From Companilactobacillus zhachilii (GTDB taxonomy: Bacteria > Bacillota > Bacilli > Lactobacillales > Lactobacillaceae), in contig NZ_CP031933.2 in assembly GCF_003606365.2 (NCBI RefSeq), positions 2,604,001-2,668,000 on the forward strand: DNA of 64,000 nt, written 5' to 3'. The notes under the pieces are model-generated. The model made no database searches and had not been told where the DNA came from. It saw only the letters and a list, made by a program, of their open reading frames with translations. Below, in pieces: positions 1 to 59,504 of this stretch. The position numbers and the translations under genes were made by a program. Positions within the stretch are counted from its first letter, which is position 1; each line of letters begins with the position of its first letter.

Positions 1-34
1 GCAGGCTTTTTCTCGTTTTTGACTGGAGACGGCA
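1..34 (-). repeat. IR-A element, truncated by the window edge (copy A0)
   Basis: The last part, CTGGAGACGGCA at 23-34, is identical to the right end of the minus-oriented IR-A copy that ends at 17448. The preceding pyrimidine-rich stretch would be the right outer arm. The rest lies outside the window, so the assignment rests on this short match. Confidence 0.5.
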
Positions 35-35
35 A

Positions 36-1451
36 CTACTTAAAAACTGCCAACCCACCAGCTGGATTCTTCCAATCAGGTTCTTGAGCTGTTACAACAA
101 GTTTTTCATTGGTAAAGGCATTTAGTCCTAATTGGCTCATTTCACGACCATAACCTGAACCTTTAACACCACCAAATGGCAATTCTGGCAATGATACTAA
201 GAATGAGTTAACGAAAACCATTCCAGTTTCAATCTTTTCAGCTATAGATTTACCGTGTTGAGGATCGGCTGAAACGACAATTCCACCTAATCCTAATTCC
301 GAATCATTGGCTAAATCAATTGCTTCTTGGTCAGAGCTTACTTTAAATACTTGAGCTACTGGTCCAAACATCTCATCATAAAATTCAGGATTATCTTTAT
401 CGATATCGGTCAAAATAGTTGGTTGAATAAATTGACCTGGCAAATCAATTGGTTGATTACCGTAATAAACTTTGGCACCACCAGCAACAGCCTTATCAAT
501 TTGGCCTTGTAGCTTTTCCTTAGCACGTTTTGAGTTCATTGGGGCAATCGTTGTCTTAGGGTCCATTGGATCACCAGGAACTAGTTTTTCAAAGTTAGCT
601 TTAAGTTTCTTCAAAAATTCATCGTACAAATTATCTGCCACGATAAAACGTTTATCTGAAGTACATACTTGTCCAGCATTATAAATCCGGACCCGCCATG
701 CTAAATCAACGGCTTTATCAACGTCAGCATCTGATAACACAACGAAGGCATCAGAGCCACCTAATTCCATTGAATTCTTCTTCAAATTCTTGCCTGCAGT
801 TTCGGCAACTGATTGACCGCCACGCTTGGAACCTGTCAATGCGACCCCTTGAACTCGAGGATCAGCAATAATATCGGCTACTTGATCATAACTAGCAAAT
901 AGATTAGTTAAACTACCAGCTGGGGCACCTGCTTCTTGAACAATTTTTTCAAAGGCAGCTGCAGAACCAGGAGTATTAGATGCATGCTTTAAAATCATTG
1001 GATTACCGACCATAAAGTTAGGCGCAAAGACACGCATAATTTGATAATATGGGAAGTTCCATGGTTCAACCATCATTAAAACACCTGTGGCTTGGTGCAA
1101 AATTTCGGCATCCCCAGTATTGCGACTACTGATTGGTGTTGGTTTCAATAAATCAGCCCCATTGTCAGCATAGTAATCGGCAATAATCGCGCAAAGTTCA
1201 ACTTCACCTTTTGATTCAGCATAAAGTTTTCCCATGTCGATCGTAGCAATCTTAGCTAACTTATCTTCATTCTCACGCAGACGGTCCGCAATTTCATGCA
1301 AAATAACTGCACGGCTCTCTACTGGTTCATCACGCCACTTCTTATAAAGGGCATGCCCAGTACTCAAAGCTGTTTCAATTTCCTCACTAGTTGCATCAGG
1401 ATACGATTTAACAAGTTCATTTGTATATGGATTGACTGTTTTATATGCCAT
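36..1451 (-). CDS. NAD(P)-dependent aldehyde dehydrogenase, succinate-semialdehyde dehydrogenase type
   Basis: Cytoplasmic aldehyde dehydrogenase superfamily enzyme of 471 residues, the usual length of GabD-like enzymes, which oxidise an aldehyde to an acid with NAD(P). The NFPYY segment, the ELGG motif with the general-base glutamate (MELGGSDAFVV) and the catalytic cysteine in GQVCTSDKR are all present. I place the start at the ATG at 1451, which lies 8 bases after GGAGG; an in-frame TTG two codons earlier is less likely. It is transcribed alone, divergently from the AEC transporter. The family assignment is firm; succinate semialdehyde as substrate is only inferred from overall similarity. 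Confidence 0.88.
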   Translation of the reverse strand: MAYKTVNPYTNELVKSYPDATSEEIETALSTGHALYKKWRDEPVESRAVILHEIADRLRENEDKLAKIATIDMGKLYAESKGEVELCAIIADYYADNGADLLKPTPISSRNTGDAEILHQATGVLMMVEPWNFPYYQIMRVFAPNFMVGNPMILKHASNTPGSAAAFEKIVQEAGAPAGSLTNLFASYDQVADIIADPRVQGVALTGSKRGGQSVAETAGKNLKKNSMELGGSDAFVVLSDADVDKAVDLAWRVRIYNAGQVCTSDKRFIVADNLYDEFLKKLKANFEKLVPGDPMDPKTTIAPMNSKRAKEKLQGQIDKAVAGGAKVYYGNQPIDLPGQFIQPTILTDIDKDNPEFYDEMFGPVAQVFKVSSDQEAIDLANDSELGLGGIVVSADPQHGKSIAEKIETGMVFVNSFLVSLPELPFGGVKGSGYGREMSQLGLNAFTNEKLVVTAQEPDWKNPAGGLAVFK

Positions 1452-1670
1452 AATCAATTCCTCCTCAATATTTAAGCGAAAAATCTAATAAAACTCTTTT
1501 ACGTATCCATTGTAAGACAGCGATTACATTTTTCAAGGATTTGCACTCGTCCACTTCTGATATTGGTACGTACCTATTATGAAAAATAGACAAATTATGA
1601 ACCTTTTTCAAAATTTTTCAAAAAAGTGTAACATAAGGGCATATAAAGTAAGATGAAGGGTGTTTTTTAT

Positions 1671-2609
1671 ATGAGTGTCTTCTTTTCGAGTATCCAAGGG
1701 ATTCTAATTATCATCGGTTTAATTGCAGTCGGCTATGGGCTGAGCGCACTGGGCTGGTTTTCTGAAAACTCAACTCGTTTAATTGCAAAAATTGTTACCC
1801 AAGTAGCCTTGCCTACTTATATGATTTCGACAATTACCAAGGACTTTACAGCTGATAAATTAATTAAATTGTTGCCTAATTTAGCAATTCCAGTCATTTC
1901 AATGACCATTTTAATTTTTATCTCCATCATTTTAATCAAAGTTTTGAAGATTGACCCCAAACACAAGGGGCTATTCTCTTCCATGTTCTTTAACTCCAAT
2001 ACCGTCTTCGTTGGCTTACCCGTTAATATGGCGCTTTTTGGTGAGAAAAGTTTACCTTACGTGTTGGTTTATTACATGGCCAATACAACTTTCTTCTGGA
2101 CTCTAGGAACATATTTGATTCAGATGGATGGCGAGATCAAAGGACACTTCAAACTAAAAACAACCCTTAAAAAAGTCTTTTCACCACCACTAATGGGCTT
2201 CATCATCGGTTTGATTTTGGTCATGTTGCACATTCAACTCCCTAAATTCTTAATGTCCGATTTTGAATACCTTGGTAATTTGACCATTCCACTTTCCATG
2301 ATCTTTATCGGTATTTCAATTTACAACGCTGGACTTAAAAATATTTCCTTCCACAAAGACAACTTGGCAATCCTCTTTGGACGTTTTATCTGTGCCCCAT
2401 TATTGATGGCTGGACTATTTCTCTTCATCCCTGCCAGTCCTTTAATGAAACAAGTCTTCATTGTTCAGGCCGCTATGCCCGTCATGACGAACGCACCCGT
2501 TGTTGCCAAACTTTACCATGCTGATTCCGATTACGCGGCTATCATGGTTACCGAAACAACGTTGCTGAGTTTAATCGTTGTACCAATTATTATGGTTTTA
2601 ATTAAGTAA
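1671..2609 (+). CDS. AEC family transporter (auxin efflux carrier/malate permease type)
   Basis: Integral membrane carrier of about 312 residues with roughly ten hydrophobic segments in two halves, typical of the AEC family. In lactic acid bacteria these transporters are linked to organic acids such as malate, but the substrate here is unknown. The conserved polar stretch FFNSNTVFVGLPVNMALFG sits in the discontinuous helix region. An upstream ATG at 1653 is in frame, but AAGGGTG at 1656-1662 is well placed as the ribosome site of the ATG at 1671, so I use the latter. An IR-C repeat begins five bases after the stop codon. Confidence 0.85.
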   Translation: MSVFFSSIQGILIIIGLIAVGYGLSALGWFSENSTRLIAKIVTQVALPTYMISTITKDFTADKLIKLLPNLAIPVISMTILIFISIILIKVLKIDPKHKGLFSSMFFNSNTVFVGLPVNMALFGEKSLPYVLVYYMANTTFFWTLGTYLIQMDGEIKGHFKLKTTLKKVFSPPLMGFIIGLILVMLHIQLPKFLMSDFEYLGNLTIPLSMIFIGISIYNAGLKNISFHKDNLAILFGRFICAPLLMAGLFLFIPASPLMKQVFIVQAAMPVMTNAPVVAKLYHADSDYAAIMVTETTLLSLIVVPIIMVLIK

Positions 2610-2613
2610 GAGA

Positions 2614-2725
2614 GTGGAACAAAACATGCTCAGCTTTCGAGCATTAAGGCAAATAGTGCCAGTAATCCGATTTTGGATTGCTGGCACTATTTGTTTTAAG
2701 CGGAAAAAGCTATGTTTTGTTCCAC
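2614..2725 (+). repeat. IR-C element copy C1
   Basis: Imperfect 112-bp palindrome. The outer arms GTGGAACAAAACAT (2614-2627) and ATGTTTTGTTCCAC (2712-2725) are perfectly complementary. They enclose a small hairpin GCTC-agcttt-GAGC and a central stem whose arms carry AGTGCCAG and CTGGCACT. The central loop is GATTTT. It lies just after the AEC stop codon, and there is no clear run of T after the outer stem, so a plain intrinsic terminator is not an adequate description. Confidence 0.85.
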
Positions 2726-2792
2726 GTTTATGCTACATGTTTAAGGCAAAAATAGTTATGTCACAGCCCCTTTTTAATACTTGAAATTAATC

Positions 2793-3962: not shown

Positions 3963-4026
3963 AACCTTTCCCCCTTTTACTTAATCACTCACAGAGTATC
4001 ATCAAGTTAACTTGGATTGCCAGTAG

Positions 4027-4206
4027 GGCCACTTCCGGGAACGAGAAATTTAGGCTGCTGTGGGGACCGACGAAAGCCAAGGTCTTTCGTCTCGATTTTG
4101 AACTTCGAGAAAACCGCTCGAATTTCAAAACTCGTCCCGTGGTGTAATGGCTAAAGCCATAACGCCACCTGCACTGCTGCCTAAATTTCTCGTTCCCTCC
4201 AGCTAA
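4027..4206 (+). repeat. IR-A element copy A1 (plus orientation)
   Basis: Outer arms GGGAACGAGAAATTTAGGC (4037-4055) and GCCTAAATTTCTCGTTCCC (4179-4197) are a perfect 19-bp inverted repeat. Between them are three hairpins in the family order: one around CGAAAGCCAAGGTCTTTCG, one of AAAATCGA/TCGAATTT type, and one GTGGTG...CGCCAC. The left end reads GCCACTTCC and the right end TCCAGCTAATG. It lies 103 bases from copy A2, which points the other way. Confidence 0.9.
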
Positions 4207-4308
4207 TGTATTTGTTATTTTGTATGGTATTCAATCATTGAGGTTCAAATTTCATTAAAATTCACCATTTTTCTTCCAACAGATTAAAAAAATTCATAAA
4301 ATACAACA

Positions 4309-7597: not shown

Positions 7598-7787
7598 ATT
7601 TACGTAATAAAAAAATAAATAACATTAATTCGAGCAAATGGGTTCCATTTTCGCGCAAAAGAAGGCATACTATATACATTGTATTAGAGTTGGTTAGAGA
7701 CTTAATTTTTCATTCGAATGGTTACTTTCTGAGATTAGCTTAATAATGCAAAAAAAGTTGCGCAAAAAGCGCTGGAGGTTCTCATTC

Positions 7788-7988
7788 ATGGAACAAGGTA
7801 CAGTTAAATGGTTTAACGCTGATAAAGGTTTTGGTTTTATTACTCGCGAAGATGGTAGTGACGTATTTGCTCACTTCTCAGCTATCCAAGGTGATGGTTT
7901 CAAGACTTTAGACGAAGGTCAACACGTAACATTCGACGTAGAAGACGGCGACCGTGGACCACAAGCTACTAACATCGTTAAAGACTAA
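7788..7988 (+). CDS. Cold-shock protein, CspA family
   Basis: Single-domain nucleic-acid chaperone of 66 residues. It has the RNP1 motif KGFGFI and the RNP2-like motif DVFAHF, and the length is standard. The ATG at 7788 is preceded by GGAGG at 7774-7778; an in-frame ATG at 7746 would add a basic tail unknown in the family and is rejected. About 100 bases of AT-rich, potentially structured leader lie upstream, as is usual for cold-inducible csp mRNAs. A strong terminator follows. Confidence 0.95.
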
Positions 7989-8006
7989 TTAGTAGTTTAA
8001 AATTTT

Positions 8007-8053
8007 AAAGGGACTTTAGTAATCAAAATTATGATTACTAAAGTCCCTTTTTT
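8007..8053 (+). terminator. Intrinsic terminator after the cold-shock gene
   Basis: Long perfect stem: AAAGGGACTTTAGTAATC pairs with GATTACTAAAGTCCCTTT across an AAAATTAT loop, followed by seven T. Confidence 0.95.
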
Positions 8054-8277: not shown

Positions 8278-11200
8278 ATGAGATTTCAACAATTAAAACG
8301 TGATCCTAACGCAATCATGAGGAAAAAGTTAGTCAAATCCAAGAAGGCGTGGGTCGTAGTAAGTAGCCTTTCCTTTGCTGGTGGACTATTACTTCTAGGA
8401 GGCCCAAATACCATTGCTAAAGCCGATGTCACCACAGAATCAGCTAAAGTAGCGACCGTTGTTGCTCAAAGTAATAGCGTAGAAACCCAGGATTCCACGC
8501 AAACTACTCAATCGAATAATAAAGAAACCAGCCTAACGGGCTCAGACACAACAGTTAATAGTGATTCTAAAAATCCAATCGACACTTCTGCATCCTCTAA
8601 CATAGACAGCAATACAGCGGAAAAGGATACGAAAATAGCTACAAATACTGTAACGAAAGATGACAATGCAACTCCATCATCTGAAGAAAATTCCACTGTA
8701 GAAAATGATTCCATTTCGACTCCTTCAGGAGCACCTGTTACTTCAGCTGCTAAAATATCTACATTTTCGTCTACCACACCTACCGACGTAGAGGATAAAG
8801 TGATCCTTACTGATAGTTCAACCACTAAAACGAGTGACTCAGCAAGCGCTGATTCTAACAATCTTAAAGATAATGAAAAGGTAACTAATGAGTCAGTAGT
8901 TATAGATCCGGTATCAACCGACTTAACTGCCGATAAACTAACTAGTGATGCACTTGCAGCCCCCATTTCCGAAGACACCAGCGTCACCACTGATTCTGGT
9001 ACTGGTTGGACCTATGATTCAACCAGTACAACCTTAAATATCACTGGTCAATTGGATGATTTTAAAGGTGGAGATACAGAGCACTGGGGCGGAAATACAG
9101 GCTCAATCACCACAGTTAAAGTGACTGCTCCAGTTAAAGCACCTACCGATTCATCATACATGTTCGCAAATATGACAAGCTTAAAAACCATTGATATCGC
9201 GAAACTAGATACTAGCAATACGACTAACATGCAGGGCATGTTTAAAAATGATACTAATATAACAAACATCGATCTTTCTAGTAATAATTTAAGTACAGCC
9301 ACAGACATTAGTCATATGTTTGAAAATGACACTAGACTTACAAATGTGGATATAGCTTCTGGTAACACAACAACTGACCCTAGACCCGGTAAACCGTTTA
9401 AAAAATTAACAGATGCAAGTTACGCTTTTGCAAATGATATAAACCTAACAAATATGGATAGTTTGAAGAGTTGGCAAGGCTGGTATCTTACTGATTTAAG
9501 TGGCATGTTCAAGGATGATGCCAAAATAAAAAGTTTAAATCTTAGTAATTTAATGTGGACCATGATGGGAGGAAGACCTAATACAGGTGATTCTTCCATC
9601 GGTGAAGGTATGTTTGATGGAACTGATTTACAATCAATTACTTTAAGTTCATCACTATCCTTCAGCCCTAAAACTGCCCTTACCTCATCGTATGGTGGTC
9701 AGTGGACATCTAACGTTGGTGAACTATCCGGCAAATCATTCAGTTTTCTAGGTGTACCGTTGATTGATAATTCTGGTACAGCAACTAGTGGTATTGGTAG
9801 TTTATACAACGGTAAAGCCGTATCTAATGATATTACACTTACTTATAATGCTAACAAATTATCTGATGGTACTACTGTATCTAATTTGATTACTATTAAC
9901 ACTAATCATGGTCCGATTTCATTTATTGCCCAAGGAACAGTCGGTCAATCTAGCACTATTAACGTTCCAGACACATTTAAATTTGAAGATGGAAATACAT
10001 ATACAAGAACTTCTGCCCCCACCGTTCAAGTAACTTTTAATCAAACACAGTCTACAGCAGCTAATGAAGCTACCTATGTAGGTGCTCTAATCTCAAATGG
10101 TACAGCTACTATTTCCACTAATGATGGCAATCAAGTGGTTAACGATATCTCTGGACATATTGGTGATACCGTTGATATCACTGTTCCTACTAAAGAAGGC
10201 TATACACCTGATAAATCCACTGTTGCTGGTATCATCCAACCCGATGGTTCTGTCAAAGTAACTGACACTGTTACTTACATCGGTAACGAAATTACTGCTC
10301 CTATTACTATTTCTACTAATAAAGGGGAAATCACAGTTAATGACGTTACTGGTAAAGTTGGCGATACTGTTGATGTTACAGTCCCTACTAAAGAAGGTTA
10401 CACACCCGACAAGTCCACTGTTAAAGCTACTATTAATCCTGACGGATCCATCACTACTTCTGATACTGTTAAGTATAGTGGTAATTCTATTACAGACGGC
10501 AAGGCAACCATTTCTTCTAACTTGGGAAATCAAGAGGTCGATAATATTGCTGGTACCGTTGACGATACTGTAACAGTAACAGTACCAATTAAGACAGGTT
10601 ATACACCTGACAAAACTACTGTTTCTGGTGTCATTCAACCTGATGGGTCCGTTAAAGTTACTGACGCCATTACTTATACTGGTAACTCCATTACAAATGG
10701 TTCAGCTTCAATATCCTCTAATGACGGTGAAAAAACTGTTACTGATATCTCTGGTAAAGTTGGTGATACTGTTGATGTCACTGTTCCTACTAAGGAAGGT
10801 TACACACCTGACAAAACTACTGTTTCTGACGTCATTCAACCTGATGGGTCTGTTAAAGTAACCGACACTGTTACTTACACTGGTAACTCCATTACAAATG
10901 GTTCGGCTTCTATCTCTTCTAATGATGGTGAGAAGACCGTTACTGGTATCTCTGGTAAAGTTGGTGATACTGTTGATGTCACTGTTCCTACTAAGGAAGG
11001 TTACACACCTGACAAAACTACTGTTTCTGGTGTCATTCAACCTGATGGGTCTGTTAAAGTAACCGACAACGTTACTTACACTGGTAACTCCATTACAAAT
11101 GGTTCGGCTTCTATCTCTTCTAATGATGGTGAGAAGACCGTTACTGGTATCTCTGGTAAAGTTGGTGATACTGTTGATGTCACTGTTCCTACTAAGGAAG

Positions 11201-13614
11201 GTTACACACCTGACAAAACTACTGTTTCTGGTGTCATTCAACCTGATGGGTCTGTTAAAGTAACCGACAACGTTACTTACACTGGTAACCCTATTACAGA
11301 TGGCTCAGCTTCTATCTCCTCTAACGATGGTAATAAAACCGTTACTGGTATCTCTGGTAAAGTTGGTGATACTGTTGATGTCACTGTTCCTACTAAGGAA
11401 GGTTACACACCTGACAAAACTACTGTTTCTGGTGTCATTCAACCTGATGGGTCTGTTAAAGTAACCGACAACGTTACTTACACTGGTAACTCCATTACAG
11501 ATGGCTCAGCTTCTATCTCCTCTAACGATGGTAATAAAACCGTTACTGGTATCTCTGGTAAAGTTGGTGACACTGTTAATGTCACTGTCCCTACCAAAAA
11601 AGGCTATACATCTGACAAAAACACTGTTTCTGGCGTCATCCAACCTGATGGGTCTGTTAAAGTTACTGATACTGTTACTTACATCGGTAACGAAACTACT
11701 GCGCCTGTTACTATTTCCACCAATAAGGGAGAAGTTACAATCAAGGACGTCACTGGTAAAGTTGGTGATACTGTTGACGTTACCGTTCCTAATAAAGAAG
11801 GTTACACACCTGATAAAAACACCGTTAAAGCTACTATCAATCCTGATGGGTCCATCACTACTATCGACTCCATTACTTATACTGGTAATCCCATTACAAA
11901 TGGCTCAGCTTCTATCTCCTCTAACAATGGTGTGAAAACAGTTACTGGCATATCTGGCAAAGTTGGCGATACTGTTGACGTTACCGTCCCTACTAAAGAT
12001 GGTTACACACCCGATAAGTCCATTGTTTCTGGTGTTATCCAACCTGATGGGTCTGTTAAAGTTACTGAAACTGTTACTTATACTGGTGATCCTATTACAA
12101 ATGGCTCAGCTTCTATCCCCACTAACGATGGTGAGAAAACTGTTACTGGCATATCTGGTAAAGTTGGTGACACTGTTGACGTTACTGTTCCTAATAAAGA
12201 AGGTTACACACCTGATAAAAACACTGTTTCTGGTGTCATCCAACCTGATGGGTCTGTTAAAGTAACTGACATTGTTACTTATACTGGTAACTCCATTACA
12301 AATGGCTCAGCTTCTATCGCTACTAACAATGGTGAGAAAACTGTCACTGGTATCTCCGGTAAGGTCGGTGACACTGTCGAAATCACTGTTCCTACTAAAG
12401 ATGGTTACACACCTGATAAAACTACTGTTTCTGGCATCATCCAACCTGATGGGTCTGTTAAAGTAACTGACGCTGTTACTTATACCGGTAACTCTATTAC
12501 AAGCGGCTCAGCTTCTATCCCCACTAATGATGGTGATAAGACCATTACTGGTATCTCTGGTAAAGTTGGTGATACTGTTGACGTCACTGTACCTACTAAA
12601 GAAGGCTACACACCTGATAAAAGTATTGTTTCTGGTGTCATCCAGCCCGATGGTTCTGTCAAAGTAACTGACACTATAACCTATACCGGAGTTGATAATC
12701 CATCCCAGACACTAACAGTCAAAAATCCAGATGGTACAATTTCACAATTATTAATTCCTGCTGGTAAATATGGCGATAATCCTGTGTCAGTAACTGCTAA
12801 GGAAATGTCTGGATACAAAGCTCCATCAGTAATTGTCACTTACAATGCAGACGGAATACCAACAATTACAGATGCCATTGACACCTCAAAATCCATTTTA
12901 GAAACAGATGAACTTTCATATACGAAGAATCCATCTCATGGTTCGGGAACCGTTAAACCTGTAATTCCAAACTCCGACGAAGGAACAATTGAACACAAGG
13001 TACAAACAATTTCCACATATTCCGACAAACCAGACGTCGAACTTTACCAACTAGGTGCTGATAACAAGATGGCTCCAATCACAAGTCGCTATCTAGCCAC
13101 AGCCTCAAACTGGTACAGCGATGCTACAATCACAATTGATGGAATTAGCTACTTCCGTGTTGCTACTAATGAATGGGCTAAAGTTGGAGAAGTCTATCCA
13201 TATCAAGCTCTCAATTTACACATCAGAACTTACGACGATTCTGAAAAAGATCTCTACAAGGCTGAAAACGTCCTAATTACTAAAGAAACTCTCGCTCCAG
13301 ACAGCAGTTGGATTACTGATCGTGAAACTTACGTTATCAACAATACTAAATACTATCGTGTTGCTACCAACGAGTTTGTTAATGCTAATGATGTCTATGT
13401 TTACTCACCTGTAAATATGATCGTAACAACTCATGCTGACAAATACACACCTCTTTACACTGCTAAGGGCACTGAAGTCACAAATAGAACTCTATCAAAT
13501 AATACTAGTTGGAAAGTTGATAGTGTCGTATATATCAACGGTGACAAGTATTACCGCGTCGCTACTAACGAATTTGTTAAAGCTAGTGACGTTGATGTCG
13601 AGAATTATCGTTAA
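8278..13614 (+). CDS. Large secreted surface protein: BspA-like repeats, thirteen 67-residue repeats, C-terminal SLAP domains
   Basis: Protein of 1778 residues. The N-terminus (about 1-50) is a long basic-then-hydrophobic signal peptide ending near AKAD, resembling KxYKxGKxW-type signals. Residues 51-240 are Ser/Thr-rich low complexity. About 250-420 holds DUF285/BspA-like leucine-rich units such as MFKNDTNITNIDLSSNN. About 602-1473 are thirteen repeats of 67 residues with VGDTVDVTVPTKEGYTPDK, resembling MucBP-like adhesin modules. Residues 1575-1778 hold three SLAP-type units with YYRVATNEFV. There is no LPXTG motif, so attachment is probably non-covalent through SLAP. AGGGGGA precedes the ATG. 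A role in adhesion is inferred; the ligand is unknown. Confidence 0.88.
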   Translation: MRFQQLKRDPNAIMRKKLVKSKKAWVVVSSLSFAGGLLLLGGPNTIAKADVTTESAKVATVVAQSNSVETQDSTQTTQSNNKETSLTGSDTTVNSDSKNPIDTSASSNIDSNTAEKDTKIATNTVTKDDNATPSSEENSTVENDSISTPSGAPVTSAAKISTFSSTTPTDVEDKVILTDSSTTKTSDSASADSNNLKDNEKVTNESVVIDPVSTDLTADKLTSDALAAPISEDTSVTTDSGTGWTYDSTSTTLNITGQLDDFKGGDTEHWGGNTGSITTVKVTAPVKAPTDSSYMFANMTSLKTIDIAKLDTSNTTNMQGMFKNDTNITNIDLSSNNLSTATDISHMFENDTRLTNVDIASGNTTTDPRPGKPFKKLTDASYAFANDINLTNMDSLKSWQGWYLTDLSGMFKDDAKIKSLNLSNLMWTMMGGRPNTGDSSIGEGMFDGTDLQSITLSSSLSFSPKTALTSSYGGQWTSNVGELSGKSFSFLGVPLIDNSGTATSGIGSLYNGKAVSNDITLTYNANKLSDGTTVSNLITINTNHGPISFIAQGTVGQSSTINVPDTFKFEDGNTYTRTSAPTVQVTFNQTQSTAANEATYVGALISNGTATISTNDGNQVVNDISGHIGDTVDITVPTKEGYTPDKSTVAGIIQPDGSVKVTDTVTYIGNEITAPITISTNKGEITVNDVTGKVGDTVDVTVPTKEGYTPDKSTVKATINPDGSITTSDTVKYSGNSITDGKATISSNLGNQEVDNIAGTVDDTVTVTVPIKTGYTPDKTTVSGVIQPDGSVKVTDAITYTGNSITNGSASISSNDGEKTVTDISGKVGDTVDVTVPTKEGYTPDKTTVSDVIQPDGSVKVTDTVTYTGNSITNGSASISSNDGEKTVTGISGKVGDTVDVTVPTKEGYTPDKTTVSGVIQPDGSVKVTDNVTYTGNSITNGSASISSNDGEKTVTGISGKVGDTVDVTVPTKEGYTPDKTTVSGVIQPDGSVKVTDNVTYTGNPITDGSASISSNDGNKTVTGISGKVGDTVDVTVPTKEGYTPDKTTVSGVIQPDGSVKVTDNVTYTGNSITDGSASISSNDGNKTVTGISGKVGDTVNVTVPTKKGYTSDKNTVSGVIQPDGSVKVTDTVTYIGNETTAPVTISTNKGEVTIKDVTGKVGDTVDVTVPNKEGYTPDKNTVKATINPDGSITTIDSITYTGNPITNGSASISSNNGVKTVTGISGKVGDTVDVTVPTKDGYTPDKSIVSGVIQPDGSVKVTETVTYTGDPITNGSASIPTNDGEKTVTGISGKVGDTVDVTVPNKEGYTPDKNTVSGVIQPDGSVKVTDIVTYTGNSITNGSASIATNNGEKTVTGISGKVGDTVEITVPTKDGYTPDKTTVSGIIQPDGSVKVTDAVTYTGNSITSGSASIPTNDGDKTITGISGKVGDTVDVTVPTKEGYTPDKSIVSGVIQPDGSVKVTDTITYTGVDNPSQTLTVKNPDGTISQLLIPAGKYGDNPVSVTAKEMSGYKAPSVIVTYNADGIPTITDAIDTSKSILETDELSYTKNPSHGSGTVKPVIPNSDEGTIEHKVQTISTYSDKPDVELYQLGADNKMAPITSRYLATASNWYSDATITIDGISYFRVATNEWAKVGEVYPYQALNLHIRTYDDSEKDLYKAENVLITKETLAPDSSWITDRETYVINNTKYYRVATNEFVNANDVYVYSPVNMIVTTHADKYTPLYTAKGTEVTNRTLSNNTSWKVDSVVYINGDKYYRVATNEFVKASDVDVENYR
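10081..12693 (+). repeat. Thirteen tandem 201-bp coding repeats
   Basis: Units begin at about 10081, 10282, 10480, 10681, 10882, 11083, 11284, 11485, 11686, 11887, 12088, 12289 and 12490, all close to 201 bp, so the reading frame is kept. The two units at 10882 and 11083 look identical base for base, while those at 10282 and 11686 belong to a divergent subtype (TAPITISTNKGE, TAPVTISTNKGE). This pattern suggests recent unequal crossover in the middle of the array. Confidence 0.93.
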
Positions 13615-16844: not shown

Positions 16845-17216
16845 ATGCAAATCTTAACTTTATTTTTGGTGGCATTAGTTGCTCTTGAGCACATTGGCAT
16901 CGCCGGTTTAGAAATGTTTGCTAAACCTGAAATTCAAGCTAATGCTTTTGATATGCCAGTTAACTTTGTAAAAACCAAAGAAGCACAAACTGCTTTAGCC
17001 AATCAAGGCATTTACAATGGTATGCTCGGCCTTTTAATTTTAGTAATGATTTTATTTTTCACTGGTTCAGTTTTAAAAACGATTTTAATTTTATTGATGC
17101 TCTATATCATCGTAGTAGCAATTTACGGCGCCGTTACAGCAACAAAGAAAATCCTTTACCTTCAAGGTGCACCAGCACTAATAGCCTTGATTTTTGTTGC
17201 CATTTTTTATCATTAA
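16845..17216 (+). CDS. DUF1304 family membrane protein
   Basis: Four hydrophobic helices in 123 residues. The opening VALVALEHIGIAGLEMF and the NQGIYNGMLGLLIL segment are typical of DUF1304, a family of unknown function. AGAAAGAAG serves as ribosome site. The gene sits between the oppositely oriented IR-A copies A3 and A4, so the two repeats bracket it. Confidence 0.85.
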   Translation: MQILTLFLVALVALEHIGIAGLEMFAKPEIQANAFDMPVNFVKTKEAQTALANQGIYNGMLGLLILVMILFFTGSVLKTILILLMLYIIVVAIYGAVTATKKILYLQGAPALIALIFVAIFYH

Positions 17217-32333: not shown

Positions 32334-33206
32334 TTGTTAGTAGGAAGTATTGAAGCAGGTGGGACAAAATTTGTCTGTGCCGTAGGTGATGAAGATTATC
32401 GGATTAAAGATAGCATCCACTTCCCCACAACTACACCTGAGGAAACATTACAAAAAACAATCGATTATTTTAAACAATTCGACATTGAAGCCCTAGGGAT
32501 TGCCTCCTTTGGTCCCATCGAATTACGTAAAAATTCTCCAAAGTATGGTTACATTACATCAACGCCTAAGCCTGGTTGGAAGAACACTGACTTTATCGGC
32601 AAGATGAAAGAAAGCCTTGACGTACCAATGTTTTGGACGACCGATGTTAACGGTTCAGCTTATGGTGAATACGTTATGTCGACGTTATCAAATGAAAAAA
32701 TCGATTCGTTAGTTTATTACACGATTGGAACTGGTGTCGGTGCTGGTGCCATTTCTGACGGCAAATTTGTCGGTAATATGGGCCATCCTGAAATGGGTCA
32801 TACATTCTTGAAACGTCACCCTGATGATCTCGATTTCAAAGGAATTTGTCCTTTCCACGGTGACTGTCTTGAAGGTCTAGTGGCTGGACCAACTTTTGAT
32901 GCTCGTTTAGGCAAGCCTGGTAAAGACGTTCCATTGACTGATCATGTTTGGGATATCATGGCTTACTATGTTGCTCAAGCAGCTATTCAAGCTACCTTGA
33001 TTCTTCGCCCTGACAAAATTGTCTTTGGTGGTGGCGTTGTCAGCGAAGCTTTCTTAGTTAAAGTACGTGCGCAATTTAAAGAATTACTAAACGATTATGT
33101 TGAAGTACCAGAACTCGAAAAATATATCACGATGCCTATTGTTAAGAATAACGGTTCCGCAACGCTAGGTGACTTTGCCTTAGCCATTCGTGAATTACAA
33201 GATTAA
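32334..33206 (+). CDS. scrK: ROK family fructokinase
   Basis: 290 residues. Phosphorylates fructose at position 6 with ATP. The N-terminal GSIEAGGTKFVCAVG is the phosphate-binding motif. The zinc-binding cluster of ROK kinases is visible as HPEMGH followed by CPFHGDCLEG, and the length matches ScrK-type enzymes. Translation starts at TTG 32334, placed after AGGAGG. The gene is divergent from the second PTS operon. ScrK partners usually handle unphosphorylated fructose from sucrose or fructans; no such hydrolase is in the window. Confidence 0.9.
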   Translation: MLVGSIEAGGTKFVCAVGDEDYRIKDSIHFPTTTPEETLQKTIDYFKQFDIEALGIASFGPIELRKNSPKYGYITSTPKPGWKNTDFIGKMKESLDVPMFWTTDVNGSAYGEYVMSTLSNEKIDSLVYYTIGTGVGAGAISDGKFVGNMGHPEMGHTFLKRHPDDLDFKGICPFHGDCLEGLVAGPTFDARLGKPGKDVPLTDHVWDIMAYYVAQAAIQATLILRPDKIVFGGGVVSEAFLVKVRAQFKELLNDYVEVPELEKYITMPIVKNNGSATLGDFALAIRELQD

Positions 33207-33242
33207 CAAAACTACTATTGGCTTAAATATGCAGCATAAACG

Positions 33243-33353
33243 CGGAATAAAACATAGCTTTTTCCGCTTAAAACAAAAGACTCCAGTAATCCAAAATCGG
33301 ATTGCTGGAGTCTTTTGTTTTAATGCTCGAAAGCTAAACATATTTTGTACCAC
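33243..33353 (-). repeat. IR-C element copy C3 (minus orientation)
   Basis: Reverse orientation relative to C1, starting with CATAGCTTTTTCCGCTTAA and ending GCTCGAAAGC...TTTTGTACC. The central stem GACTCCAGTAATCC pairs with GGATTGCTGGAGTC across AAAATC. Lies between the fructokinase and the TVP38 gene. Confidence 0.85.
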
Positions 33354-33423
33354 TCTTTTTTTAGTTACTTTCACAAATAAATATGCTAAGTTGAAGCTAG
33401 AAATATTTTCTGGGGGGCAACTA

Positions 33424-36194: not shown

Positions 36195-36380
36195 ACTAGC
36201 CATAAAGAGCAAGAAATTCGGGTTGCTGTGCAGGTGGAGTTAGCGCTTTAGTGCTTACTCCACGGGACAACTTTTGAAATTCGCGTTCTTTGCGAAGTTC
36301 AAAATCGAGACTCGAGACCGCCTTTCGGCTCGAGTCGGTCCCCATAGCGACCCAAATTTCCTGCTCTTGGAGGCGGCATA
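36195..36380 (-). repeat. IR-A element copy A5 (minus orientation)
   Basis: Begins ACTAGCCATAAAGAGC and ends GCTCTTGGAGGCGGCATA. The outer arms AAGAGCAAGAAATTCGGGT and ACCCAAATTTCCTGCTCTT pair with two mismatches, fewer than expected for unrelated sequence. The hairpin GGAGTTAGCGC...GCTTACTCC replaces the GTGGTG type. It occupies most of the 463-bp gap 35939-36401, together with the terminator. Confidence 0.88.
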
Positions 36381-45661: not shown

Positions 45662-45764
45662 TTAAATAAACCTCACAAGCGAACATATATTTACAAGTCT
45701 ACAACTAGTTAGTATTATACAATAAGATGTTACTAGATTACTAATCGGGTCGTTGGATAAGGTC

Positions 45765-45943
45765 ATGCCGCCGGAGGGGGCCAATGATGAAGTCTGCTGT
45801 GGGACCGGCCCGAGCCAAGGTCTCGGACCTCGATTTTGAGCTTCGCAAAGTACGCGAATCTCAAAATACGTCCTGTGGTGTAAGAGCTAAAGCTCTAACA
45901 CCACTGTCACTGCTGACTTCATCATTGGCCCCCTCCAGCTAGG
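45765..45943 (+). repeat. IR-A element copy A7 (plus orientation)
   Basis: Left end ATGCCGCCGG, right end CTCCAGCTAGG. The outer arms are long and GC-rich: GGGGGCCAATGATGAAGTC and GACTTCATCATTGGCCCCC, perfect over 19 bp. An inner hairpin is AGAGCTAAAGCTCT. Followed after 118 bases by copy A8 in the other orientation; the pair fills the 627-bp gap 45662-46288. Confidence 0.9.
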
Positions 45944-46061
45944 TTATTATTTAATTGAAATGTATTTCCCCTTTTTATAAGATTTAGTAATTACAAAAAG
46001 ATTTAAAAAATATGCGTGGTACTAGTTAGTCCTTTGACTATTAATTCAAAACAAAGAATAA

Positions 46062-46246
46062 ACTAGCCGGAAAGAGCAATAAATTTTGGTCGCTGTGCAG
46101 GTGGAGTTAGCGCTTTAGCGCTTACTCCACGGGACGACTTTTGAAACTCGCGGTTTTTGCGAGGTTCAAAAGCGAGATTCGAGACCGCTCTTTGGCTAGA
46201 ATCGGTCCCCATAGCGACCAAAATTTCTTGCTCTTGGAGGCGGCCT
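46062..46246 (-). repeat. IR-A element copy A8 (minus orientation)
   Basis: Starts ACTAGCCGGAAAGAGC and ends GCTCTTGGAGGCGGCC. The outer arms AAGAGCAATAAATTTTGGTCG and CGACCAAAATTTCTTGCTCTT-type pair with one mismatch. The inner hairpin GGAGTTAGCGCTTTAGCGC is shared with copy A5, to which A8 is most similar. Confidence 0.9.
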
Positions 46247-46288
46247 AGTACTAACCATTAAAAATTTAAACAATGAAAGAGAGCCACC

Positions 46289-46854: not shown

Positions 46855-46897
46855 AAAAAGTCTTTCTTCTCAATTTTTTTGAGAAGAAAGACTTTTT
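46855..46897 (+). terminator. Intrinsic terminator after the DUF1801 gene
   Basis: AAAAAGTCTTTCTTCTC pairs with GAGAAGAAAGACTTTTT around a T-rich loop. Confidence 0.93.
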
Positions 46898-46917
46898 GTT
46901 TATATATTCAGTGGCTC

Positions 46918-47306
46918 TAAAACGAGCTACACAGGCCAATTTCTTCCGCTTTTCATAGAACTGTAAACTGCCCGCAAAAACCGGTGTGCAATTTACAGTT
47001 CTACGAAAATGCTCGGAAATTCCCGGGCCTGCTCCGCTCTCTGATATTTAAACGAGCTACGGCAGGGCAACTCCTTCCGCTTTGCCTAACTTCCCAAATC
47101 ATCCGCAAAAAACGCGGATAATTCGTGAAGTCATGCAAATGCTCGGGAGCTGAACGCCCTGCCTTCGCTCTCTTGTTCTTAAACGAGCTGCGGACGACAG
47201 ATTCCTGTGCATTTCTACGCTTCCCAAATCATCCGCAAAGTTCGCGGATAATTCGTGAAGCTAGGAAATTGCTCGGAATCTAACCGGTCGTCCTCCGCTC
47301 TCTTTT
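46918..47306. repeat. Tandem array of three IR-B elements (B2, B3, B4)
   Basis: Units at 46918-47041, 47050-47173 and 47181-47306, each starting AAACGAGCT and ending CGCTCTCT. The outer arms differ yet pair: CAGGCC/GGGCCTG, GGCAGGGC/GCCCTGCC, GGACGAC/GTCGTCC. Inner stems are also paired; B2 has GAACTGTAAA...TTTACAGTTC where B3 and B4 have CTTCCCAAATCATCCGC. The array fills the 467-bp gap 46840-47306 together with the terminator and ends exactly at the DUF1129 stop. Confidence 0.88.
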
Positions 47307-48062
47307 TTAAAAGAAAGAACGTTCCTTATATCCTGTCATTGAACGGAACAAGAATCTTCCACCGAAGGCAACTGCTGCTGCTATGAAGTAGCCGATTGCG
47401 TTTAGTGGTGGGTTGATTGATGTTGGTACGGCTGTCATGGCTGCTAGGAAGACGAACATGAAGACTAGTCCGACTACTAAATAACCGATGGTTATTCCCC
47501 AGCCTGGTCGTTCGGACTTAGGTTTCTTCATTTGGTTATTGAACCATGATAATAATGCACCCCACATTGCTGACAAGACGATCAATGTAATGATACCTGT
47601 CTGGCTGTTAGGATCATTCTTAGCAGCGCCTTTGCTTGTTAAAGCAACGATTCCGTATAACAATCCAAACAATGAAAAGAACAATAGTGAAGTATCAAGC
47701 CATGAAGCCCAGAATGGTGTCTTCTTTGGCTTTTTCACTGGATGTGTAATATCCTGAGCTCTTTGTGTCACGGGTCCATAAAGTTGGTTAGCTGGAATCC
47801 CTTTGATTTGGTTTTCGATAATTTCGGGAAGAAGTTTGTCAATTTCGGTCTTGGCTTCATCTTCTTTAAATCCATCGTCCATCAAATACTTATTAAGTTT
47901 AAAAATGTATTCGGCATTTTTATTACTTAATTTTTTGCGTAAATCATCAGCATCTGCACTGTAGATTTCGCTTTTGATTTCTTCTTTTTTTTCATTCTTA
48001 GCTGAAGCAACTTTTTGTTTTTCAGCAGCTTGCTTATTCTTTTCTCTTAAATCCTCAGACAT
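47307..48062 (-). CDS. DUF1129 family membrane protein
   Basis: 251 residues. A charged N-terminal half rich in Lys/Glu (about 1-110, partly helical, with DADDLRKKLSNKNAEYIFKLNKYL) precedes four to five membrane helices. DUF1129 proteins are widespread in lactobacilli and their function is unknown. It is the last gene of the ychF operon. Confidence 0.9.
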   Translation of the reverse strand: MSEDLREKNKQAAEKQKVASAKNEKKEEIKSEIYSADADDLRKKLSNKNAEYIFKLNKYLMDDGFKEDEAKTEIDKLLPEIIENQIKGIPANQLYGPVTQRAQDITHPVKKPKKTPFWASWLDTSLLFFSLFGLLYGIVALTSKGAAKNDPNSQTGIITLIVLSAMWGALLSWFNNQMKKPKSERPGWGITIGYLVVGLVFMFVFLAAMTAVPTSINPPLNAIGYFIAAAVAFGGRFLFRSMTGYKERSFF

Positions 48063-51084: not shown

Positions 51085-51208
51085 TTTATTCCCCTATCTC
51101 TAGAAATTGCCGAACAACTTCACAAAATATTTATCTATGGTAATCACTCTTTGGCGCTTTTGCCATAACTCTATAATCTTATCATTTTTATTCAATTGTT
51201 TAATAGGT

Positions 51209-51394
51209 TTGCCGTTTCCGGAGCCAAGAAAGATTAACTGGCAGTGCGGACCGGTCTGAGCCAAGGTCTCAGACCTCAGTTTGAAGCCTTGCAAGCAAGT
51301 CTCCAAACATGCCCGGTGCTGTAAGGCCGAGAAAACCACTCGACCTAACACCACTTTCACTGCCTGTTAATCTTTCTTGGCTCCTCCGACTATG
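51209..51394 (+). repeat. IR-A element copy A9 (plus orientation), between parA and rsmG
   Basis: Left end GCCGTTTCCGGAGCC, right end GGCTCCTCCGACTATG. The outer arms GGAGCCAAGAAAGATTAAC and GTTAATCTTTCTTGGCTCC are a perfect 19-bp inverted repeat. The arm core AAAGATTAAC is shared with copy A4. It fills most of the 343-bp gap 51085-51427; nothing else is recognisable there. Confidence 0.9.
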
Positions 51395-51427
51395 GTATTT
51401 GTTATATTAATATTTTTAGATTAGTGA

Positions 51428-53449: not shown

Positions 53450-53496
53450 CGTCTGCAAACTGGAGAAATGAGATGATTGTCATAAATTAGACCTTT

Positions 53497-55097: not shown

Positions 55098-55130
55098 CCA
55101 TAGATACTGAATTAATTTAAGTACACAAGC

Positions 55131-55179: not shown

Positions 55180-55181
55180 GT

Positions 55182-55363
55182 CTGCCGTCTCCGGGAGCAA
55201 GGGATTTAGGTTGCTGTGGGGACCACCTGGAGCCAAGGTCTCCAGGTTCGATTTTGAACTTCGAGAAAATCACTCGAATTTCAAAACTCGTCCCGTGGTG
55301 TAGGCGCTAAAGCGCCAACGCCACCTTCACTGCTACCTAAATCCCTTGCTCCCTCCGACTAGT
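55182..55363 (+). repeat. IR-A element copy A10 (plus orientation)
   Basis: Left end CTGCCGTCTCC, right end CTCCGACTAGT. The outer arms GGGAGCAAGGGATTTAGGT and ACCTAAATCCCTTGCTCCC are a perfect 19-bp inverted repeat, differing from copy A11 by compensated changes. The inner hairpin GGCGCTAAAGCGCC is shared with A11. With the terminator it fills the gap 55098-55461. Confidence 0.9.
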
Positions 55364-55461
55364 TCATTCGCTATTTCTAATAAAATTGCCCAATAGTTTG
55401 AAGTTTCGTCGATTTTTTACACTTAACTGAAGATAAAAAATCACCTTCATCAAATTATCTT

Positions 55462-56793: not shown

Positions 56794-56843
56794 CTCGTTG
56801 TTTAACTATATTACAACATTTCTAATTATATTGGAGAAAAATT

Positions 56844-57518: not shown

Positions 57519-57555
57519 AAAAACATCAAATCCATGACGGATTTGATGTTTTTTT
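57517..57555. terminator. Bidirectional terminator between gatD and ackA
   Basis: AAAAACATCAAATCC pairs with GGATTTGATGTTTTT around ATGAC; it overlaps the gatD stop. Confidence 0.93.
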
Positions 57556-57560
57556 ATTGT

Positions 57561-58745
57561 CTATTGTAACGCCGCTACCTGACGCACCATAGCTAATTCT
57601 TCATCAGTTGGAATCAATAGAACTTTAATAGCTGAATCAGGACTACTAATTAAGCCTTCTTTTCCAGCTTCATTTAATTTAGCATCTAATTTAACATTAA
57701 AAATTGCCAATTCATCAATAATTTGTTGACGTAATTGAACATTATGTTCGCCGATTCCTCCAGCAAATACCAAAGCATCAGCACCATGTAGTTCAGTTAT
57801 ATAACTACCTGCATATTTAACGATTCGGTTAACAAAAATTTCAATAGCCAACTTAGCTTGAGGATTAGTTGCTTCTTGAGCTTTAATTTCACGCATATCC
57901 GGTGAGATACCAGAAACGCCAAGTAGACCAGATTTTTGATTTAACATCATCATGATTTCATTTGGATCTGTAACGTTTAATTCTTTCATCAAATAAGGTA
58001 CTAAGGCTGGATCAACATCACCAGCACGTGTTCCCATCGTTACACCAGTTAAAGGTGTGAATCCCATTGAAGTATCAAAGGCTTTCCCATCTTTAACTGC
58101 CGCTAATGAAGCGCCACTACCTAAATGCATCGTTACAAGATTGATTTTATCTTTAGGCATATCTAATAATTCAGCTGCACGCCCCGTCAAGTAACCATGA
58201 GAAATTCCATGTTCACCATAACGGCGAATTTGATATTTCTTCGTCAATTCATAAGGCAAACTATAAATCGCATTCATTTCAGGTAAGTCCGTAAAGAATT
58301 GGCTGTCAAAAACAGCATATTGCTTAACATCAGGCAAAGTCTTCGCCATTGTTTCAATCCCTTGAGCTTCCATTGGATTGTGCAGTGGTGCAAAGTTACT
58401 GAGTTCTTTAATTTGCTTCAAAACTTCAGGTGTCACTTCAACAGCTGATTTAAAAACTTGTCCACCAGCAACTACACGATGTGCTACCGCTGTGATCTCA
58501 CTCAAGTTTTGAATAATTTCCAAACGTTGTAATTCGTCGAAAACCATTTGTGCTGCGTGAGCTTGGTCCAAGTTATCAACCGTTGTTTCAAATTTTTGGT
58601 GATCACCGTATTTAATTGTAAAAATAGATCCTGGCATACTGATTCTTTCCACTAAACCATTGGCTAAAACAGTCTCAGCGGGCATTTCAAACAATTGCCA
58701 CTTCAAGGATGAACTACCAGCATTAATAACTAATGTCTTTTGCAT
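57561..58745 (-). CDS. ackA: Acetate kinase
   Basis: 394 residues. Forms ATP from acetyl phosphate and ADP, the last step of heterofermentative or phosphoketolase acetate production. Opening KTLVINAGSSSLKW, then catalytic HRVVAGG, HLGSGASLAA, DTSMGFTPLTGV and GGIGEH. The ATG at 58745 is preceded by GGGAGAGTGA; the frame stays open 300 bases upstream, but through the IR-A copy A11. Confidence 0.95.
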   Translation of the reverse strand: MQKTLVINAGSSSLKWQLFEMPAETVLANGLVERISMPGSIFTIKYGDHQKFETTVDNLDQAHAAQMVFDELQRLEIIQNLSEITAVAHRVVAGGQVFKSAVEVTPEVLKQIKELSNFAPLHNPMEAQGIETMAKTLPDVKQYAVFDSQFFTDLPEMNAIYSLPYELTKKYQIRRYGEHGISHGYLTGRAAELLDMPKDKINLVTMHLGSGASLAAVKDGKAFDTSMGFTPLTGVTMGTRAGDVDPALVPYLMKELNVTDPNEIMMMLNQKSGLLGVSGISPDMREIKAQEATNPQAKLAIEIFVNRIVKYAGSYITELHGADALVFAGGIGEHNVQLRQQIIDELAIFNVKLDAKLNEAGKEGLISSPDSAIKVLLIPTDEELAMVRQVAALQ

Positions 58746-58810
58746 CGAAATCACTCTCCCATGTAATAGCATACCGGATTTTCTGAAAATTTGTTGAGAT
58801 TTATTTAAAT

Positions 58811-58995
58811 ATGCCGCCTTCAAGAGCAAGAAATTTAGGTCGCTATGGGGACCGATTGGAGCCGAAAGGCGGTCTCCAATCTCGATTTTGAACCTCGCAT
58901 AAACCGCGAGTTTCAAAAGTCGTCCCGTGGTGTAGGCGCTAAAGCGCCAACGCCACCTGCACAGCGACCTAAATTTCTTGCTCTTTCCGGCTAGT
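58811..58995 (+). repeat. IR-A element copy A11 (plus orientation), best reference copy
   Basis: Outer arms 58823-58844 and 58963-58984 are a perfect 22-bp inverted repeat (core AGAAATTTAGGTCGC). Inside are three hairpins in order: 58854-58881 (GATTGGAG/CTCCAATC with a GAAA-type inner loop), 58882-58923 (TTTTGAA.../...TTCAAAA) and 58927-58956 (GTGG...GGCGCT/AGCGCC...CCAC). GGGGAC before the first and GTCCC after the second can pair, giving a multi-branched fold. End motifs are ATGCCG (left) and CCGGCTAGT (right); GCCG and CGGC can close the structure. I see no target duplication. Confidence 0.92.
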
Positions 58996-59326
58996 CCTTT
59001 GTAATGAAATAATAATTGATTAGCAATCTTATTCGCTTGTACCATAAAAATAGAACGTTTATATTCCTTGCACTCATTAAATTACTTAATGTATAGGACC
59101 TTGCACAACGCGTTATTCCAAAGCAAAGAACACAATTAATTCAGAAGAAATTAATAATTCAGAATATCATCAAAGTATTATTGACGAAAAAATATACTTC
59201 AAAAACAGTGCATATAACGTTTCTTGATTTTTACTACAATCTTGAATCATCTTATGCACTTAACCGAGTATTGAAAAAAAAATACGCAAACTCAAATACT
59301 CAAAATTATCCAAAACGACAAATACC

Positions 59327-59504
59327 CTAGCTGGAGGGAGTAAGTAATTTAGGTCGCTGTGAAAGTGGCGTTATGGCTTTAGCCATTACACCACGGGACG
59401 ACTTTTGAGACTTGCGGTTTTTGCAAGGCTCAAAATCGAGTCTGGAGACCTTGGCTCCAGACGGTCCCCATAGCGACCTAAATTACTTACTCCCGGAAGC
59501 GGCA
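59327..59504 (-). repeat. IR-A element copy A12 (minus orientation)
   Basis: Begins CCTAGCTGGAGGGAG and ends CTCCCGGAAGCGGCA. The outer arms GGGAGTAAGTAATTTAGGTC and GACCTAAATTACTTACTCCC are a perfect 20-bp inverted repeat. It ends six bases from the stop of the ECF gene. Between A11 and A12 (58996-59326) is AT-rich sequence in which I recognise nothing but a possible ackA promoter region. Confidence 0.9.

What the first reader, a model, noticed from the sequence alone, without database searches (positions are those of the whole stretch)
1..59504. IR-A: a dispersed family of about 185-bp multi-hairpin elements (12 full copies and one partial in 64 kb)
Copies at 4027, 4309, 16377, 17275, 36195, 39409, 45765, 46062, 51209, 55182, 58811 and 59327 (starts), plus a fragment at 1-34, share one architecture: a 19-22 bp outer stem, then three hairpins in fixed order, with ATGCCG at one end and CTAGT at the other. 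They occupy nearly every gap longer than 300 bases. I know of no named element with this plan. Possible roles: a mobile non-autonomous element, a structured RNA in transcript leaders or tails, or a chromosome-architecture site. The structure is seen; the function is not.
Basis: seen in the sequence. Interest (0 to 1): 0.92.

Follow-up and report, generated by a model that had tools for sequence, protein, structure and literature searches.

The report
Folded DNA module in lactobacillus miniature transposons
A roughly 185-letter piece of DNA that can fold into a stem with three hairpins is scattered hundreds of times through the genome of a fermentation bacterium and occurs in many relatives, and it rides inside several kinds of tiny gene-less jumping elements, which raises the question of why they share one elaborate fold.

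Summary
In detail: 12 full copies, and the 1-34 fragment is the end of a 13th. The fold is supported by changes on both sides of 41 of 65 pairs. The host is a Companilactobacillus. 800 kb of its genome hold 158 strong copies, about 535 by extrapolation. Hits occur in 62 of 251 Lactobacillaceae genomes; no Rfam match.

It is mobile DNA. Inserts of about 220-700 bp are absent at orthologous sites in relatives, and recurrent tails follow the CTAG side. One class ('alpha') looks like a classical MITE: inverted ends, 8-9-bp target duplications in 11 of 19 units (0.5 expected), full IR-A in 13 of the 19, always 20-21 bp inside one end. Other copies follow at least three other left ends. Close neighbours are nearly always tail-to-tail (36 of 38), also in three other genera.

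Pairing is nearly all Watson-Crick without G.U excess on the model strand, and orientation to genes is unbiased: evidence against a cis-regulatory RNA. REPIN criteria fail in part. No mobilising enzyme was found; IR-A's own role is inferred.

The parts
1..34 (-). end of an IR-A copy cut by the window edge (full copy at genome 2603844-2604034)
   Evidence: L164:8871-9061
4027..4206 (+). IR-A copy (model strand, TGCCG end first)
   Evidence: 186 bits
4307..4495 (-). IR-A copy, tail-to-tail neighbour of 4027
   Evidence: 167 bits
16378..16564 (+). IR-A copy
   Evidence: 143 bits
17274..17448 (-). IR-A copy; the 709-bp gap to 16378 holds a 123-aa ORF at 16845-17216
36196..36378 (-). IR-A copy
   Evidence: 179 bits
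39411..39598 (-). IR-A copy
   Evidence: 171 bits
45746..46265 (.). whole insert (two IR-A copies and the spacer) absent as one block in 10 relatives; L031 and L033 hold one copy there
45766..45942 (+). IR-A copy of that pair
   Evidence: 185 bits
46012..46027 (+). alpha terminus (2 mismatches) in the spacer, on the tail side of the copy at 46063
   Evidence: G000 2650012-2650027
46063..46245 (-). IR-A copy of that pair
   Evidence: 180 bits
51204..51425 (+). single-copy insert: IR-A with about 5 bp before it and a short tail; absent in 21 relatives (gaps of -20 to 60 bp there); L033 has a pair and L031 one copy at this site
51210..51393 (+). IR-A copy of that insert
   Evidence: 158 bits
55183..55362 (+). 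IR-A copy; absent in 9 relatives, but the insert ends are not resolved
58798..59509 (.). 712-bp insert: two IR-A copies, TGCCG ends outward, with the spacer; absent as one block in 8 relatives
58812..58994 (+). left IR-A copy of that insert
   Evidence: 190 bits
59327..59504 (-). right IR-A copy of that insert; best-scoring of the 150 scored copies of the genome
   Evidence: 202 bits

Best explanation
IR-A is a conserved folded DNA module, not a complete element. It sits just inside one end of small gene-less transposable units, or at both ends of a block with the TGCCG sides outward. The units spread through intergenic DNA in lineage-specific bursts. At least one class ('alpha') moves like a MITE: a cut-and-paste transposase supplied in trans recognises its inverted ends and leaves 8-9-bp duplications, carrying IR-A along. 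SHOWN: presence/absence at orthologous sites, ends, duplications, the fixed position of IR-A, covariation, spread across Lactobacillaceae. INFERRED: that a DDE-type transposase does it; that the fold works as DNA (a hairpin on one exposed strand, or a cruciform) and helps the unit, for example as a landmark for a host protein or at replication forks; that units with different ends took up the module because of that benefit.
For: Mobility: at 13 distinct sites a block with IR-A is missing in at least one relative, 3 of them pair-plus-spacer blocks; four of the 13 are missing in several relatives. Upstream flanks are nearly unique (18 hits, 21 of 159 elements), downstream tails recur (687 hits, 81 of 159). 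Spacers of pairs at different loci are homologous. Copy number is patchy: 33 of 36 genomes of the genus have a hit (some only at E 1e-6 to 1e-8; 75 candidates scored each), with first-look counts of 1224-1509 in four genomes against 189-636 in the other 32. The alpha end is frequent in the same four genomes (17-38 sites each at up to 1 mismatch; at most 2 in any other). Ends: 55 alpha ends in G000 against 1 control. Of 19 units with two alpha ends, 11 have a duplication matching at least 7 of 8 (0.51 expected), 6 perfect (0.27 expected). 13 of the 19 hold full IR-A, each 20-21 bp inside one end. Module character: left flanks form at least four groups, each abutting IR-A at the same base (87 links against 6 in the control region). 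DNA-level fold: A.C 136 / G.T 73, 170 / 75 and 81 / 38 in three sets. No orientation bias relative to genes.
Against: No transposase gene was found inside inverted pairs of ends, including two longer spans, so the enzyme is unknown. Nine of the 13 absences rest on one relative, so deletion there is not excluded; at 2396105 the relative (G011) keeps what looks like an IR-A 3' end, which points to deletion. A general scan for inverted ends with duplications over 156 elements beats its control only at one threshold (score >= 20: 6 against 1; >= 19: 6 against 6; >= 18: 24 against 17), so most copies cannot be delimited. Beta has few duplications (1 of 22 at >= 7/8, 0.19 expected, many of the 22 being loose matches). 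Of the 19 alpha units, 2 hold a 106-nt remnant and 4 no detected IR-A, one of these (101 bp) with a perfect 9-bp duplication, so IR-A is not needed for movement. The twofold A.C excess would also fit a function on the complementary strand, RNA included.
Confidence: 0.62

Rival explanations
1. REPIN-like system: two outward IR-A copies are the true ends of the mobile unit, recognised as single-strand hairpins by a dedicated enzyme. Single copies are remnants, and the alpha/beta ends are secondary.
For: Tail-to-tail orientation dominates among neighbours closer than 750 bp: 36 of 38 in the host sample, 32 of 36 in G024+G011 and 9 of 10 in other genera, 11 of 11 in the window plus named Companilactobacillus loci. 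Three pair sites lack the whole block in relatives. Spacers vary in type.
Against: No Y1 (RAYT/IS200) domain in G000 or G024, both rich in copies, while zero-copy G002 and G026 have one; of the other two rich genomes G011 has two and G012 a fragment. Paired copies are not better conserved than singles (0.731 against 0.752). Singles have their own tails and duplications. L031 and L033 hold one copy where the host has two.
Confidence: 0.17
2. Functional RNA carried by the elements, read on the complementary strand (CTAG to CGGCA), for example an insulating or stabilising structure. Tail-to-tail pairs would give it to transcripts from either side.
For: Covariation with recurring core motifs across genera. 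The A.C excess on the model strand is a G.U excess on the complement in all three sets. RNA z-score -12.5 for the model strand.
Against: The excess is only about twofold and pairing is nearly all Watson-Crick. Single-copy orientation relative to genes is 23/25. No Rfam match. No expression data.
Confidence: 0.12
3. The fold has no function. It is an inherited palindrome whose arms are kept complementary by template switching between arms during replication.
For: Mostly Watson-Crick cells and little G.T. Outer stems differ in sequence between genera yet pair. Unpaired core columns are on average not better conserved between genera (0.62) than paired core columns (0.64).
Against: Some core positions stay at least 90% identical over 48 copies of four genera, where outer-stem identity between genera falls to 0.46, and all helices persist in fixed order.
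Confidence: 0.14

Closest known systems
BOX elements of Streptococcus pneumoniae (PMC3049150, abstract passage and other passages seen)
   Same: Modular, strongly folded, high copy, non-autonomous, spread in a burst; proposed to be moved by an IS with similar ends.
   Different: BOX is boxA-boxB-boxC with its ends paired in the fold. Here one fixed fold follows at least four different left ends. No direct sequence comparison with BOX was run.
bcr1 repeats of the Bacillus cereus group (PMC6542083, passages seen)
   Same: Small mobile repeat of a Gram-positive group (bcr repeats 100-400 bp); bcr1 has 11-130 copies per genome.
   Different: bcr mobility is linked to a TTTAT motif and a site-specific-recombination-like mechanism. 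Here inverted ends with 8-9-bp duplications (alpha), and presence in many genera.
REPINs (PMC3116915, abstract and passages seen)
   Same: Inverted doublets with variable spacers, compensatory changes, extragenic, many copies.
   Different: No RAYT domain in two of the four copy-rich genomes, doublets not better conserved than singles, module of about 185 bp instead of REPs of 20-40 bp (size from the abstract of PMC3733652).
MITEs in general, Correia and ERIC (PMC10969869, passages seen)
   Same: Inverted ends, target duplications, mainly intergenic, folded, small.
   Different: The internal fold follows different ends and is conserved across genera. The term 'lactobacill' does not occur in the review's main text.

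Membership tests
MITE (alpha units) | terminal inverted repeats | tested here: met
   55 sites of the 16-bp end at up to 2 mismatches against 1 control; 19 units with two inverted ends in the loci in hand
MITE (alpha units) | target-site duplication | tested here: met
   11 of 19 at least 7/8, 0.51 expected; 6 of 19 perfect, 0.27 expected
MITE (alpha units) | short, no transposase gene | tested here: met
   units of 88-369 bp; no ORF of 70 aa or more in the 8 host-sample pair spacers of 300-500 bp
MITE (alpha units) | autonomous relative with the same ends | tested here: inconclusive
   none found; only two longer spans were examined, 1.9 kb (G012) and 3.0 kb (G011), and they hold ORFs that do not look like transposases (judged by eye, no family search)
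MITE (remaining IR-A copies) | inverted ends with duplication | tested here: inconclusive
   11 of 155 with strong outer complementarity against 0 in two controls; combined scan mostly at control level
REPIN/RAYT | Y1 (RAYT) transposase in the genome | tested here: not met
   0 in the host G000 and in G024; 2 in G011, a fragment in G012; 18 of 36 genomes in all; control rings in E. coli
REPIN/RAYT | inverted doublets over-represented | tested here: met
   36 of 38 close neighbours
REPIN/RAYT | doublets better conserved than singlets | tested here: not met
   0.731 (66 paired) against 0.752 (84 single), permutation p = 0.087 in the opposite direction
Rfam RNA family | match to a curated model | tested here: not met
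   0 at gathering score in the window; none over IR-A at E <= 5; none over IR-A in 6 loci of other genera
cis-regulatory RNA | fixed orientation relative to genes | tested here: not met
   23 sense, 25 antisense among single copies in co-directional gaps
ISL3-derived MITE (beta units) | ISL3-like end and 8-bp duplication | tested here: inconclusive
   end GGTTCTTTCT... resembles GGCTCTTTGTCAAAT beside the host's ISL3 match (ISL3 end form and 8-bp rule are recalled); one perfect duplication, 1 of 22 at >= 7/8

The most novel reading that the evidence does not exclude
IR-A is a portable DNA-structure module, independent of any one transposase, that different non-autonomous transposons of Lactobacillaceae have taken up. 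It folds on one exposed strand and raises their mobility or persistence: a shared plug-in for genomic parasites.
Probability: 0.25. Interest if true: 0.8.

Novelty: new variant of a known kind. Interest (0 to 1): 0.6.

Why it matters
About 3.6% of the sampled host sequence (28.8 of 800 kb) is this one fold. It is shared by units with different ends and recurs over many Lactobacillaceae genera, so it can be tested directly whether a DNA fold inside a transposon affects its spread. It also marks a large repeat class for which I found no description, relevant to reading genomes of food bacteria.

Tried and rejected
RAYT/Y1 as mobiliser: judged unlikely, absent from the host and G024, though G011 has two.

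Genes inside the pairs: none of 70 aa or more in the 8 spacers of 300-500 bp; longer gaps hold ordinary-looking ORFs; spacers under 300 bp were not listed.

Autonomous alpha element: sought through two long inverted spans, no transposase-like ORF seen.

Pairs as recent inverted duplications: rejected, the arms (30 pairs) are less alike than random pairs (outer stem 0.50 against 0.60).

Generic end-plus-duplication scan: mostly at control level.

Plasmids and phages: no match by distant blastn of one pair.

Hits outside Lactobacillaceae: 6 of the 21 positive genomes of 345, 1-2 hits each at no more than 48 bits. Reverse-strand shadows of true copies reach 58 bits, so these are taken as background.

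Literature: nine searches. By title and start of abstract, none listed a paper on such an element in lactobacilli. Passages were read in five papers.

Rows dropped: of 243 hits, 160 were kept (158 at 98 bits or more, two at 50-51 bits) and 83 read by eye as opposite-strand shadows. One antisense row was dropped from A6, but is. A count for the window and named loci (9 of 11) was wrong, because shadows were kept; one search gives 11 of 11.
Full report
WHERE. The window is G000:C1:2604001-2668000 of a single-contig genome of 2,714,973 bases. A protein taken as RsmG (name recalled) is closest to Companilactobacillus nantensis (97%), then C. musae and C. huachuanensis, so the host is a Companilactobacillus. 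G024 contig C31 has the length (20,796) of the C. nantensis contig behind L031, and G012:C34 matches with the same coordinates as C. huachuanensis L033, so these are probably those species.

OBSERVATION. The 12 copies were aligned in one orientation. RNAalifold gives 65 pairs, 41 with changes on both sides. Counting on the MAFFT alignment gives 97.1% paired cells against 80.2% +/- 0.9 in shuffles and 33.9-47.7% with slid partners, and 144 cells changed on both sides against 41.8; the measure 'further pair types' does not exceed its shuffles (65 against 61.5, 94 of 500). The model R1 (178 positions, 64 pairs) recovers the 12 copies. The fragment at 1-34 is the end of a full copy. Rfam has no match over the copies at gathering score or at E <= 5.

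HOW MANY AND WHERE. All 150 scored candidates of the host genome match at E <= 2.2e-30; the first look had 1671 candidates, of which 150 were scored. In 800 kb taken as 40 stretches, not a random sample, there are 158 strong copies and 2 weak ones, 79 in one contiguous 400 kb and 81 in 400 kb of scattered stretches. This extrapolates to about 535. 155 of 160 are intergenic by a simple ORF map, and 112 of 171 gaps over 300 bp hold one. In the genus 33 of 36 genomes have a hit at E <= 0.001, several only weakly. G002, G020 and G026 have none, and first-look counts are highest in G000, G011, G012 and G024 (1224-1509, the other 32 genomes 189-636). The 400-kb samples of G024 and G011 hold 37 and 92 hits. 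In 251 Lactobacillaceae genomes, 10 candidates scored each, 62 match, in 11 of 40 genera; nine genera have a hit at E <= 1e-11, g4 and g13 only weaker ones. In the order-wide sample 21 of 345 genomes match; 15 are Lactobacillaceae and the other six have 1-2 weak hits each.

THE FOLD ACROSS GENERA. In 20 stretches (390 kb) of 16 genomes of four other genera, chosen at known hits, there are 49 hits at E <= 1e-6, one a reverse-strand shadow. 57 of 64 pairs show a change on both sides and 89.7% of cells pair (this alignment is fitted to the model and leans towards it). Between genera identity is 0.46 in the outer stem, 0.64 in paired and 0.62 in unpaired core columns; 83% of outer and 91% of core cells are Watson-Crick, and a set of core positions is at least 90% identical.

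DNA OR RNA. Leaving out columns fixed for a mismatch, the model strand has G.T 73 / A.C 136 among 150 host copies (9128 Watson-Crick cells), 75 / 170 among 129 copies of G024+G011, and 38 / 81 among 48 copies of other genera. One host column left out is T.G in 101 of 150 copies. A functional RNA on the model strand would be expected to favour G.U. The twofold A.C excess points weakly to the complementary strand, as RNA or single-stranded DNA. Copies share ancestry, so the binomial p-values overstate this. Singles in co-directional gaps are 23 sense / 25 antisense.

THE MOBILE UNIT IS LARGER THAN IR-A. Upstream flanks are nearly unique while downstream tails recur in 81 of 159 elements, 51 of 87 singles included. 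Tails of one family (12 aligned) run about 170 bp and include a terminator-like hairpin. Conservation around IR-A starts about 10 bp before TGCC and ends about 23 bp after CTAG, both stretches poor in C. Comparison with relatives gives 13 distinct sites where a block with IR-A is missing elsewhere. Examples: 359 bp at 2128613-2128971 (relative G024), 366 bp at 2467766-2468131 (G011), 222 bp at window 51204-51425, and the pairs at window 45746-46265 and 58798-59509. The relatives' gaps are -20 to 77 bp and several junctions are blurred by divergence. Nine of the 13 rest on one relative; at 2396105 G011 keeps an IR-A-like 3' end, which points to deletion there.

ENDS AND DUPLICATIONS. Flanks facing the tails are strongly complementary in 11 of 155 elements, against 0 in two controls. 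Left flanks cluster into alpha (CGTGGTGCTAGTTAAATA), beta (GGTTCTTTCT..AA.TTTGGTTAGT), gamma and delta groups, all touching IR-A at TGCC (pattern controls: alpha 0 against 12 observed, gamma 0 against 4, beta 5 against 12). For alpha, 55 ends in the host face 1 control, and the end is frequent only in G000, G011, G012 and G024 among 36 genomes. Of 19 units in the loci in hand 11 have a duplication of at least 7/8 (0.51 expected) and 6 are perfect. R1 finds full IR-A in 13 of the 19, always 20-21 bp inside one end: L151, L154, L155, L164, L189, L201 (81 bits), L260, L267, L272, L273, L332, L335, L338. L336 and L337 hold a 106-nt remnant. Units of 88, 101 and 195 bp have none at E <= 0.001, and one of 238 bp (L221) none at E <= 1e-9. 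L339 (101 bp, no IR-A) and L335 (305 bp, IR-A) both have perfect 9-bp duplications, so units with and without the module have moved. Beta has one perfect 8-bp duplication (AAGATTTC) but 1 of 22 overall at that level. One beta unit lies, with a near-perfect repeat, in the loop of a terminator-like hairpin.

PAIRS. Neighbours closer than 750 bp: 36 tail-to-tail, 2 same-strand, 0 head-to-head in the host sample; 32 of 36 in G024+G011, 9 of 10 in other genera, the nine lying in three genera; 11 of 11 in the window plus named Companilactobacillus loci. Spacers are AT-rich and many fall into shared families. The arms of a pair are not especially alike. One pair (2688022) shares the tail of an alpha unit on its left and has a beta end on its right. 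What fixes the orientation is unexplained.

READING. IR-A is a conserved folded module of non-autonomous transposable units. Movement is indicated by absence at orthologous sites, and for alpha also by ends and duplications. The enzyme is not found: no Y1 domain in G000 or G024, one ISL3 match in G000, no gene seen inside the units. That the fold acts as DNA and helps the units is inference. It resembles BOX, bcr1 and REPIN elements in behaviour but fails tested features of the REPIN system, and no paper on it appeared in nine library searches.

Noticed in passing
window 2652-2730 and 62038-62116: Second dispersed hairpin (apical part close to CAGTAATCCGATTTTGGATTGCTGG, terminator-like) followed by TTTAAGCGGAAAAAGCTATGTTTTG, 91% identical. 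A similar hairpin occurs in G011, and one IR-A unit lies in the loop of such a hairpin.
   Followed up: partly
window 46893-47307: Another repeat family (copies about 130 bp apart) with many matches elsewhere in G011, G012 and G024.
   Followed up: no
window 33206-33356 and 60222-60372: Two-copy repeat of about 150 bp, 78% identical.
   Followed up: no
window 8278-13614: 1778-aa ORF, by eye a secreted or surface-type protein, with a series of 67-aa repeats (201-bp period).
   Followed up: no
window 7713-8045: cspA-thermoregulator-like match at 75.2 bits, just under the gathering score of 78.
   Followed up: no
flanks of IR-A (10 bp before TGCC, about 23 bp after CTAG): Conserved, C-poor, T-rich borders on the model strand, shared by units with different ends. 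Unexplained.
   Followed up: partly
L285:2330-2395: RAGATH-18 RNA match (53.2 bits, gathering 44.9) in a genome of another genus.
   Followed up: no
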